Shown in pieces: positions 1 through 37,200 of a stretch of DNA of 64,000 nt. The stretch's first letter is position 1. The number at the start of each line of letters is the position of its first letter. Under the pieces are notes generated by a model that made no database searches, had not been told where the DNA came from, and saw only the letters and a program-made list of their open reading frames with translations. A program made the translations under genes and the position numbers. Where the stretch lies: assembly GCF_015554145.1 (NCBI RefSeq), contig NZ_JADNHZ010000008.1, positions 1 to 64,000 on the forward strand. Direction: 5' to 3'. The DNA is from Collinsella aerofaciens. GTDB taxonomy: Bacteria > Actinomycetota > Coriobacteriia > Coriobacteriales > Coriobacteriaceae.

Positions 1-175
1 CCCTTGACAGCGGATTGGGTCATATGAGCGAAAACCCGCCAGAGCGAGCAAGGTGCCTTGAAACGAGGCGGCATTGATCTTTTGGTCATGCCGCCGAAGT
101 TGAAAGGCAGATTGCCGCCCTGGCGGGTTTGCAGCGTCGAGCAGTTACGGCGTTTGGTAAAACGCCGTAACTCAA
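1..175 (+). ncRNA. Structured RNA, copy A (5' end cut off by window edge)
   Basis: Shares three identical blocks with copy B at 36682-36850: positions 48-63, 100-114 and 128-141. Between them the helices are conserved but the bases differ. P2 is AAACCCGCCA (32-41) with TGGCGGGTTT (121-130). P3 is TGCCTT (54-59) with AAGGCA (104-109). P4 is GGCGGCA (67-73) with TGCCGCC (89-95), extended by TGATC/GGTCA around a TTTT loop. A 12-bp hairpin follows, GTTACGGCGTTT (144-155) with 160-171. By analogy with copy B the 5' strand of a closing helix should lie just before base 1. The + orientation is inferred from purine-rich conserved single strands and a UUUU loop. It converges on the next gene, so here it is not a 5' leader of anything in the window. 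Family unknown. Confidence 0.7.
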
Positions 176-1084
176 CTAGAAGCGGTTGCCGCGGAAGCCG
201 CCACCGTTGCGGCCGCCACGGTCGCCACCGCGACCGCCGCGGTCGTTACCACGGTTGCCGCCGAAGCCACCACGGTTGCCACCGCGATCGCCATAGCCAC
301 CACGGTTGCCACCAAAGCCGCCGCGACCGCCACGGTCGCCGCCACGGTCGCCAAAGCCGCCACGGCCACCGCGATCGCCACCGCGACCGCCACGGTCGCC
401 GCCACGGCCACCGCGATCGCCAAAGCCGCCGCGACCGCCACGGTCGCCGCCACGGCCACCGCGCTCGTCACGGCCGCCGCGAGGACCGCGGTCCTCGTCC
501 AGGCCCATGGCGACGAGCGGAGCGATAACCTTATCGAGAGCGGCCATCAGCTCGGTAGCCTCCTCGTAAGAAAGCTCGGGCAGGAGCTTCTCCTTCTTGT
601 TGGCAAGCTCGACCAGGCCCTCAGCGGCATCCTCGGCAGCGAAGACAACGATCTTGCGCATATCGCCCTCGGCGTCGTCGATGCGGCCGACCAGATCGGC
701 AGCCTCGGCCTCGGCCATCAGGCCATCGAGCTCACGAAGGCGCATGCCCAGCAGGTCGGACATTTCCTTCTGCTCCATCTTGGGCTTGAGGTCAAGAAGC
801 TTGATGGCGCGCTCGATGTTCGCCATGCGCTCGGCCTTGGCCTCCTCCTCCTTGGAAATAGCAAAGCGACGGCTGCGCAGCAGGCGGGCGGCCTTCTGCA
901 TCTTGTCCATCAGCTCTTCGTCATCGTAATCAGCGGCGGCCTCGACAACCTCGGCCTCCTCGGCGGAAACCTCGTCAGCAGCCTCAACCTCGGCAGCTTC
1001 GGTCTCCACAGTCTCGACTGCCTCAACCTCGGCAGCCATGGTCTCGTTCTCGGTCTCGTTCATGATCTCTTCGTTCTCAGACAT
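176..1084 (-). CDS. Winged-helix protein with acidic N-terminus and RGG-repeat tail
   Basis: 302 residues in three parts. Residues 1-55 are very acidic (Glu/Ala-rich, low complexity). Residues about 55-195 are helical and resemble a MarR-type winged helix (segments around MEQKEMSDLLGMRLREL and RKIVVFAAEDA). Residues about 198-302 are almost entirely Arg, Gly, Asp, Phe and Asn, with about 20 RGG tripeptides, many as DRGGRGG or GGFGDRGG. RGG boxes bind RNA and promote phase separation in eukaryotic proteins; in bacteria they are uncommon, so RNA binding here is inference. The repeats show in DNA as 9- and 18-bp degenerate tandem units. The start is ATG at 1084 after an AGGAGTCTC-type SD. The stop lies next to the hairpin of structured RNA copy A, which may help end the transcript. 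Specific function unknown. Confidence 0.85.
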   Translation of the reverse strand: MSENEEIMNETENETMAAEVEAVETVETEAAEVEAADEVSAEEAEVVEAAADYDDEELMDKMQKAARLLRSRRFAISKEEEAKAERMANIERAIKLLDLKPKMEQKEMSDLLGMRLRELDGLMAEAEAADLVGRIDDAEGDMRKIVVFAAEDAAEGLVELANKKEKLLPELSYEEATELMAALDKVIAPLVAMGLDEDRGPRGGRDERGGRGGDRGGRGGFGDRGGRGGDRGGRGGDRGGRGGFGDRGGDRGGRGGFGGNRGGYGDRGGNRGGFGGNRGNDRGGRGGDRGGRNGGGFRGNRF

Positions 1085-28250: not shown

Positions 28251-28277
28251 TGCGCTAGTATAGGGAACAACAGATTC

Positions 28278-28372
28278 GATGCGGGAGTGCCGGCGGTGCA
28301 AACCACAAGGCTGAGAGGGCATAGGGCCCAATCCTTTGAACCTGTCAGTTAATGCTGGCGTAGGGAGCATGC
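28278..28372 (+). promoter_or_regulatory. TPP (THI-box) riboswitch
   Basis: Contains the conserved pyrimidine-sensor core CTGAGAGGG (28311) and the pyrophosphate-side segment AACCTGTCAG (28339) with GGCGTAGGGA (28358), in the spacing of thiamine pyrophosphate riboswitches. It precedes thiM and is followed at once by a terminator, so TPP binding should stop transcription of the thi operon. Confidence 0.95.
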
Positions 28373-28381
28373 CGCCTTTAC

Positions 28382-28412
28382 AGGGGCGCTGTCTATGCAC
28401 AGCGCCCCTTTT
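28382..28412 (+). terminator. Attenuator terminator of the TPP riboswitch
   Basis: AGGGGCGCTGT paired with ACAGCGCCCCTTTT, directly after the aptamer and before the thiM SD. Confidence 0.88.
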
Positions 28413-36681: not shown

Positions 36682-36850
36682 GGTGGTCACCTCGATGTTC
36701 TATCAATGTCAGCGATAAGCCAGTTGATGAGGCAAGGTGCCTTGAAAGAGGAGGGCGCTGAGCTTTTACCCGCGCCCGACGATTGAAAGGCAGATTGACC
36801 ATCAGATGGCTTTGCAGCGTCGAGGTGACCGCCGTTCGTTAGAACGGCGG
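36682..36850 (+). ncRNA. Structured RNA, copy B: candidate riboswitch before the ArsC-like gene
   Basis: Helices: P1 GGTGGTCACCTCGA (36682-36695) with TCGAGGTGACCGCC (36820-36833), 14 bp with one G-T. P2 is AAGCCA (36717-36722)/TGGCTT (36807-36812) plus GATG/CATC. P3 is TGCCTT (36738-36743)/AAGGCA (36787-36792). P4 is GGGCGC (36753-36758)/GCGCCC (36772-36777). The conserved blocks 36732-36747, 36783-36797 and 36811-36824 are identical to copy A; P2 and P4 differ in sequence but keep pairing. A 3' hairpin CCGCCGTTC-GTTA-GAACGGCGG (36829-36850) overlaps the 3' strand of P1, so the two are mutually exclusive. GAGGTGA (36822-36828), the only good SD before the gene at 36859, is inside P1. Ligand and family unknown. 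Confidence 0.75.
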
Positions 36851-36858
36851 AACATTAT

Positions 36859-37200
36859 ATGAATATCCAGATTTTTGGCACCAAAAAGTCCTTCGATACC
36901 AAGAAGGCCCAGCGCTTCTTCAAAGAGCGTCGCATCAAGGTGCAGTTTATTGACCTAAAGGAAAAGGAGATGAGCAAGGGCGAGCTCACGAGCGTGATGC
37001 AGGCAGTCGGCGGCATCGACAAGCTACTCAACCCCAAAGCCAAGGACGAGGAGATGCTCGCGCTCATCCAGCACCTTACCCCCAGCCAGCGCTTCGATAA
37101 GTTGCTCGAGAATCAGCAGGTCCTGGCCGAGCCCATTGTGCGCAACGGCAAGAAGGCAACCGTCGGCTATTGCCCGGACGTGTGGGGAGCCTGGGAGTAG
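36859..37200 (+). CDS. ArsC/Spx-family protein lacking the catalytic Cys
   Basis: 113 residues from ATG 36859. ArsC-like thioredoxin fold: MNIQIFGTKKSFDTKKAQRFFKERRIKVQFIDL, later EPIVRNGKKATVGY. Relatives read GTKKCxDTKKA; here the Cys is Ser (codon TCC), so thiol-based arsenate reduction is unlikely. There is no SD immediately upstream; GAGGTGA lies 31 nt away and is brought to about 8 nt from the ATG only if the intervening hairpin folds. Expression is therefore probably controlled by the RNA in front. Real function unknown. Confidence 0.82.
   Translation: MNIQIFGTKKSFDTKKAQRFFKERRIKVQFIDLKEKEMSKGELTSVMQAVGGIDKLLNPKAKDEEMLALIQHLTPSQRFDKLLENQQVLAEPIVRNGKKATVGYCPDVWGAWE

What the first reader, a model, noticed from the sequence alone, without database searches (positions are those of the whole stretch)
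1..175. Two intergenic copies of an apparently undescribed structured RNA with compensatory changes
Regions 1-175 and 36682-36850 share three identical blocks (48-63 with 36732-36747; 100-114 with 36783-36797; 128-141 with 36811-36824), yet the helices in between differ in sequence and stay paired. P2 is AAACCCGCCA/TGGCGGGTTT in one and AAGCCA/TGGCTT plus GATG/CATC in the other. P4 is GGCGGCA/TGCCGCC in one and GGGCGC/GCGCCC in the other. Both end with a stable 3' hairpin of unrelated sequence. Conserved loops plus covarying stems are the signature of a functional RNA. I cannot assign it to TPP, cobalamin, SAM, glycine, c-di-GMP, preQ1, T-box, 6S, tmRNA or RNase P. raiA-type RNAs of actinobacteria and clostridia are one family to compare.
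Basis: seen in the sequence. Interest (0 to 1): 0.9.

Follow-up and report, generated by a model that had tools for sequence, protein, structure and literature searches.

The report
Folding repeat family behind gut-bacterial genes
The two sites are copies of a large, uncatalogued family of folded repeats, tens per genome, found in gut bacteria of the order Coriobacteriales; they sit right behind stop codons, mostly in one direction relative to DNA replication, and look more like a repeated palindromic DNA element than a single-purpose regulatory RNA.

Summary
In detail: the three shared blocks are exact and the helices between them covary. It is not two copies but a family: about 30 strong copies (53 hits) in this Collinsella genome, and hits in 104 of 298 Coriobacteriia genomes (36 of 125 genera). 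No hit was found outside the order Coriobacteriales in a phylum-wide sample, and no Rfam family matches. Across 94 copies 97% of stem cells pair and 35 of 48 pairs covary (0 of 500 shuffles reach this). Anatomy: a long rod with conserved tandem G.A internal loops, then a short hairpin that abuts the stop codon of a gene on the other strand (84 of 94 copies; 75 within 6 nt). In Eggerthellaceae chromosomes 59-62 of 64 copies point the same way relative to replication (genes about 69%). The element comes and goes at orthologous sites, its stems are swapped between species, and an IS110-family element uses it as a target. This fits a REP/BIME-like structured interspersed repeat, probably acted on as a folded single strand, better than a dedicated ncRNA, which is not excluded. 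The mover is unknown; a Y1/RAYT transposase is not required. New variant of a known kind.

The parts
1..23 (+). right end of an IS110-family insertion sequence abutting copy 1 (contig end)
   Evidence: CTTGACAGCGGATTGGGTCAT is identical to the right end of a ~1.53 kb IS (Transposase_20 + DEDD_Tnp_IS110) inserted at the same point of other copies
27..134 (+). copy 1, rod domain (AGCGA ... GCAG), one long imperfect hairpin
   Evidence: model R1 161 bits; fold z -11.4 together with the hairpin; covariation
52..53 (+). 5' side of conserved internal loop A[GG]U/A[GA]U (3' side 110-111)
   Evidence: conserved across copies; in other copies GT/AA and AT/AG replace it; orientation flipped in L018
60..61 (+). 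5' side of near-invariant tandem G.A loop U[GA]A/U[GA]A (3' side 102-103)
   Evidence: flanking pairs nearly invariant in 92 distinct Collinsella-type copies
135..138 (+). CGTC, 3' member of the short direct repeat flanking the rod
   Evidence: in glmM orthologues the rod is cleanly missing between such GACG/CGTC repeats
144..171 (+). copy 1, 3' hairpin (H1), loop GGTA
   Evidence: all 11 H1 hairpins in 447 kb of own genome belong to elements
176..1084 (-). gene whose stop codon (176-178, - strand) lies 4 nt from H1; 302 aa, no Pfam match
36682..36697 (+). copy 2, 5' arm of an extra outer stem (GGTGGTCACCTCGATG) that can pair with 36818-36830
   Evidence: read from the sequence; absent from congeners that lack the element
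36711..36817 (+). copy 2, rod domain
   Evidence: model R1 134 bits; fold z -5.9
36829..36850 (+). copy 2, 3' hairpin (H1), loop GTTA
   Evidence: its 3' arm lies just before the ArsC-family gene start
36859..37200 (+). downstream ArsC-family gene; copy 2 is one of the minority of copies with a co-directional downstream gene
   Evidence: Pfam PF03960 2.2e-6; 7 of 94 copies have +/+ context

Best explanation
The two sites are members of an uncatalogued family of dispersed, two-domain structured repeats of Coriobacteriales: a 105-110 nt rod with tandem G.A internal loops, plus a 22-28 nt hairpin set against a stop codon. I think they work like REP/BIME elements: short non-coding repeats spread and refreshed by recombination or transposition, whose reader-strand fold is recognised while single-stranded, most likely as DNA (the DNA step is inferred). 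They are tolerated or kept directly behind genes co-oriented with replication, and an IS110-family element uses them as a landing site. Shown: structure, strand, copy number, placement, orientation bias, turnover and the IS110 insertions. Inferred: single-stranded DNA as the acting form, and mobility by an unidentified enzyme.
For: 53 hits in the own genome and up to 45-49 per genome in relatives. 97% of cells paired, 666 double-change cells, 0 of 500 shuffles. Strand: in the basal stem (12 pairs) G.U 36 vs A.C 9 in Collinsella-type copies and 25 vs 7 in distant ones; G.A or G.G 30 vs T.C 2. Placement behind stop codons, 84 of 94. Orientation relative to replication in three single-contig chromosomes with dnaA located: 59 of 64 with the terminus at the midpoint (p 1e-5 against 69% leading-strand genes), 62 of 64 with the G123 terminus set by GC skew; in convergent gene pairs H1 abuts the leading-strand gene in 9 of 10 and 7 of 10. 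Presence/absence at the copy-2 and glmM sites with remnants and a clean rod-less form. Different stems at orthologous sites. IS110-family insertion at the same base in two copies, same right junction in two more; REPs are known IS110 targets (PMC1525189). REPs typically lie within 20 bp of gene 3' ends (PMC3733652).
Against: No transposition was seen directly; empty sites can be deletions of palindromes between short direct repeats. Placement and orientation could partly follow expression rather than replication; in Collinsella chromosomes the bias is weaker (22 of 28). The copies are larger than known REPs and lack GTAG tags. Y1/RAYT genes co-occur overall (odds ratio 4.9) but 29 element-bearing genomes, two with over 40 copies, have none, so no mover is known.
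Confidence: 0.5

Rival explanations
1. A functional RNA family: the reader's strand is transcribed (small RNA, or antisense RNA reaching the 3' end of the adjacent gene) and folds into a rod bound by a protein through its tandem G.A loops.
For: Strong covariation with G.U tolerance on that strand; conserved tandem G.A modules; rod loops are c(UUNN)g, c(UUCG)g being the second commonest (54 copies). B. cereus bcr10 and bcr18 are repeats thought to act as RNA (PMC3446304).
Against: The strand is antisense to the adjacent gene in 84 of 94 copies; no promoter-like consensus was apparent by eye 5' of the rod (not formally tested); tens of copies with swapped stems; hairpin loops are G-N-Y-A or G-N-A, almost never GNRA (4 of 193), a pattern that from general knowledge fits stable DNA loops rather than RNA.
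Confidence: 0.27
2. A 3'-UTR element acting in the sense mRNA of the adjacent gene, as terminator, mRNA stabiliser or ribosome-release hairpin.
For: Hairpin 0-6 nt from the stop codon in 75 of 84 such copies; REPs are thought to act this way (PMC3733652).
Against: On the mRNA strand the tolerated mismatches would be A.C and C.U, the reverse of what RNA selection gives; no U-tract after the hairpin; at glmM the apparent intrinsic terminator lies further downstream with or without the element (by eye).
Confidence: 0.12
3. A chromosome-polarity signal: the folded strand marks replication direction, for example for a replisome, gyrase or translocase partner.
For: Orientation switches at dnaA and at the opposite GC-skew switch.
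Against: Counts vary from 0 to 45 between species of one genus, which does not fit an essential polarity signal; the bias is weaker in Collinsella.
Confidence: 0.08
4. A mutational artefact: palindromes kept perfect by template switching between arms, without selection.
For: Whole-stem changes at orthologous sites could arise from quasipalindrome correction.
Against: Such correction would erase the G.A internal loops, which are conserved and swap G.A for A.G; it also predicts no strand asymmetry of mismatches, unlike.
Confidence: 0.03

Closest known systems
REP / BIME elements (GTAG- and CGTC-tagged repeats; PMC3733652)
   Same: Dispersed non-coding palindromic repeats with tens of copies, within about 20 bp of gene 3' ends, between convergent or co-directional genes, used as IS110 targets
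   Different: Much longer two-domain structure with conserved tandem G.A loops; one prevailing polarity to gene and replication; no unpaired GTAG tag; no required RAYT; the main text of that survey does not mention Collinsella, Eggerthella, Coriobacteria or Actinobacteria
bcr repeats of the Bacillus cereus group (bcr1-bcr18; PMC3446304 and the work it cites)
   Same: Intergenic repeats, some with conserved structure, bcr1-3 MITE-like and often in UTRs
   Different: Unrelated lineage; in what I read, no replication-linked polarity or gene-end antisense placement is described
REPINs and RAYT transposases (PMC3116915, PMC8266576; abstracts only)
   Same: Short palindromic repeats thought to be mobilised by Y1 transposases acting on single strands; Y1 genes also occur in many of these genomes
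   Different: 29 of 104 element-bearing genomes lack any Y1_Tnp; the two Y1 genes of the own genome are not flanked by the element as far as examined
IS110 / IS621 target sites (PMC1525189, PMC11208160)
   Same: A REP-like repeat serves as the specific target of an IS110-family element
   Different: The target here is the conserved GACAGCGA at the rod's 5' base
raiA RNA and Rfam families in general
   Same: Large structured element of bacteria with covariation
   Different: No Rfam 15 model matches any copy tested

Membership tests
REP / BIME repeats | Dispersed multi-copy palindromic non-coding repeat | tested here: met
REP / BIME repeats | Located close to 3' ends of genes, in convergent or co-directional gaps | tested here: met
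   84 of 94 copies, 75 within 6 nt of the stop
REP / BIME repeats | 20-40 bp units tagged by an unpaired GTAG or CGTC | tested here: not met
   Rod 105-110 nt plus hairpin; no GTAG tag. CGTC flanks the rod, but several nt separate it from H1 and the order differs from CGTC-REPs
REP / BIME repeats | Associated RAYT transposase (GTAG type) | tested here: not met
   29 of 104 element-bearing genomes have no Y1_Tnp match, including two with over 40 copies
Functional RNA family | Conserved structure supported by covariation | tested here: met
   35 of 48 pairs with double changes, 0 of 500 shuffles
Functional RNA family | Match to a described Rfam family | tested here: not met
Functional RNA family | Transcribed from the structured strand | not testable with these tools
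   No expression data; the strand is antisense to the adjacent gene in most copies
MITE | Terminal inverted repeats and target-site duplication shown by empty sites | tested here: inconclusive
   At glmM the rod is missing cleanly between GACG repeats in three species, but deletion explains this as well as insertion

The most novel reading that the evidence does not exclude
An order-wide nucleic-acid element that is selected as a folded single strand, polarised relative to replication and set behind leading-strand genes, whose stems are exchanged between copies while purine-mismatch modules are kept: a new type of replication-polarised structured repeat (or RNA) with its own dedicated, still unknown protein partner.
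Probability: 0.25. Interest if true: 0.85.

Novelty: new variant of a known kind. Interest (0 to 1): 0.62.

Why it matters
Gut genera such as Collinsella, Gordonibacter, Eggerthella and Adlercreutzia carry this element, many genomes with tens of copies; it is absent from Rfam and I did not find it in the papers searched. It gives a large natural data set on why a repeat is kept as a folded strand at gene ends, and its replication-linked polarity gives a direct handle on whether such repeats act or move at forks. It is also a caution: strong covariation alone does not make a sequence a functional RNA.

Tried and rejected
Known RNA families: rejected. Cis-regulator of the downstream gene: rejected as the general rule, since 84 of 94 copies have a convergent gene on that side. 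RAYT/Y1 transposase as the required mover: rejected. CGTC-tagged REP proper: looked at because of the flanking CGTC, but the layout differs. Independent solo hairpins as a separate element: in 447 kb all 11 belonged to elements; a few solo or doubled hairpins exist elsewhere. A first alignment had one misplaced row (L013 in A2) and was replaced by A3. The covariance alignments A4 and A5 are fitted to the model, so pair counts lean towards it; in the mismatch count the arms are paired without gaps from the base of the stem, not by the model. The A.C count contains a register artefact and is not used. The gene calls come from a simple codon-usage finder and a few are visibly wrong.

Full report
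Observation. No Rfam family reaches its threshold in the window except a TPP riboswitch elsewhere, and none gives a credible match to the two copies even at low stringency or to ten loci with further copies. Bases 1-23 belong to something else, see below.

It is a family. A DNA search of the own genome gave 36 matches; a covariance model from 12 own copies (A3, R1) gave 53 hits, about 30 of them strong. In 60 relatives 34 genomes had hits, up to 45 copies, with congeners ranging from 0 to 45. In the class, 104 of 298 genomes and 36 of 125 genera had hits at E 1e-4; in a phylum sample all 11 positive genomes were in the same order. Matching contig lengths indicate that the own genus is Collinsella and that G123 is Gordonibacter sp. 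Marseille-P2775.

Anatomy. In one locus the first loop is flipped end for end (L018), as expected of an independent structural module. Across 94 copies 97% of cells pair, 35 of 48 pairs have double changes, with 666 such cells against 191 in shuffles.

Which strand. In the basal stem, G.U outnumbers A.C 36 to 9 in Collinsella-type copies and 25 to 7 in distant ones; G.A or G.G mismatches outnumber their complements 30 to 2. With no selection on one strand these would be equal.

Where it sits. In 84 of 94 Collinsella-type copies the gene on the hairpin side lies on the other strand, with its stop codon within 6 nt of the hairpin in 75. The selected strand is therefore usually antisense to that gene. 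Copy 2 of the window is one of the minority with a co-directional downstream gene (FMN-reductase-like gene before it, ArsC-family gene after it).

Replication. dnaA was located in single-contig chromosomes. In G123, G138 and G119, 59 of 64 listed copies point in one direction relative to the fork with the terminus placed at the midpoint; with the G123 terminus placed by GC skew it is 62 of 64. Genes in G123 are 69% leading-strand (95 of 137), which gives p about 1e-5. In convergent gene pairs, where one gene of each strand is present, H1 abuts the leading-strand gene in 9 of 10; in Collinsella it is 7 of 10, and overall 22 of 28 there. The selected strand is the leading-strand template. From general knowledge this is the orientation that exposes a folding strand least, as described for integron attC sites; that comparison is recalled, not tested.

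Turnover. At the copy-2 site three congeners have the element, and its closest congeners lack it, most of them keeping part of the hairpin. Behind glmM four species have it, three show only the hairpin with the rod cleanly missing between GACG repeats, four keep fragments, and four show nothing. At many orthologous gene ends the element is present in several species but with quite different stems or even different 5' flanks. Some pairs show compensatory changes in place. Exchange between copies, re-insertion, and deletion by slippage may all happen; the data do not apportion them.

IS110. In four copies from two genomes the 5' flank is the right end of an IS110-family element (Pfam Transposase_20 and DEDD_Tnp_IS110). 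In the two copies read in full it spans about 1.53 kb and is inserted within the conserved GACAGCGA at the same base. Window bases 1-23 are the same IS end. REPs are known targets of IS110-family elements (PMC1525189).

What moves it. The own genome has two Y1 transposase genes; no copy of the element was seen beside them. Y1 genes co-occur with the element overall, but 29 of 104 element-bearing genomes lack them, including G119 and G123 with 43 and 49 copies. The mover is unknown.

Conclusion. In how it is distributed this works like a REP/BIME repeat of Coriobacteriales, but it is not filed as a member of the tagged REP families (size, tag and RAYT tests not met). A functional RNA remains possible; transcription of the selected strand is the missing test.

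Noticed in passing
window 28273-28383: TPP riboswitch, the only Rfam match in the window
   Followed up: no
L025, L032, L033, L035 and others, upstream of the element: A second dispersed repeat, TTTAAGAACGTCCCCAATGACTA and its inverse, often lies just 5' of the element; absent from the window within 3 mismatches
   Followed up: partly
L018 1501-1720: Two adjacent rod-like variants without H1, one with the first internal loop flipped end for end
   Followed up: partly
L048 (own genome C22:85111-85233): A copy without H1 lies next to what looks like the 3' end of the RNase P RNA gene (read by eye)
   Followed up: no
L034, L149, L185, L355: In rare co-directional copies the 3' arm of the hairpin runs into a Shine-Dalgarno-like GGAAGGA before the next gene
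   Followed up: no
L375: The element pattern matched one Spirochaetaceae MAG contig; chance, misbinning or transfer not resolved
   Followed up: no
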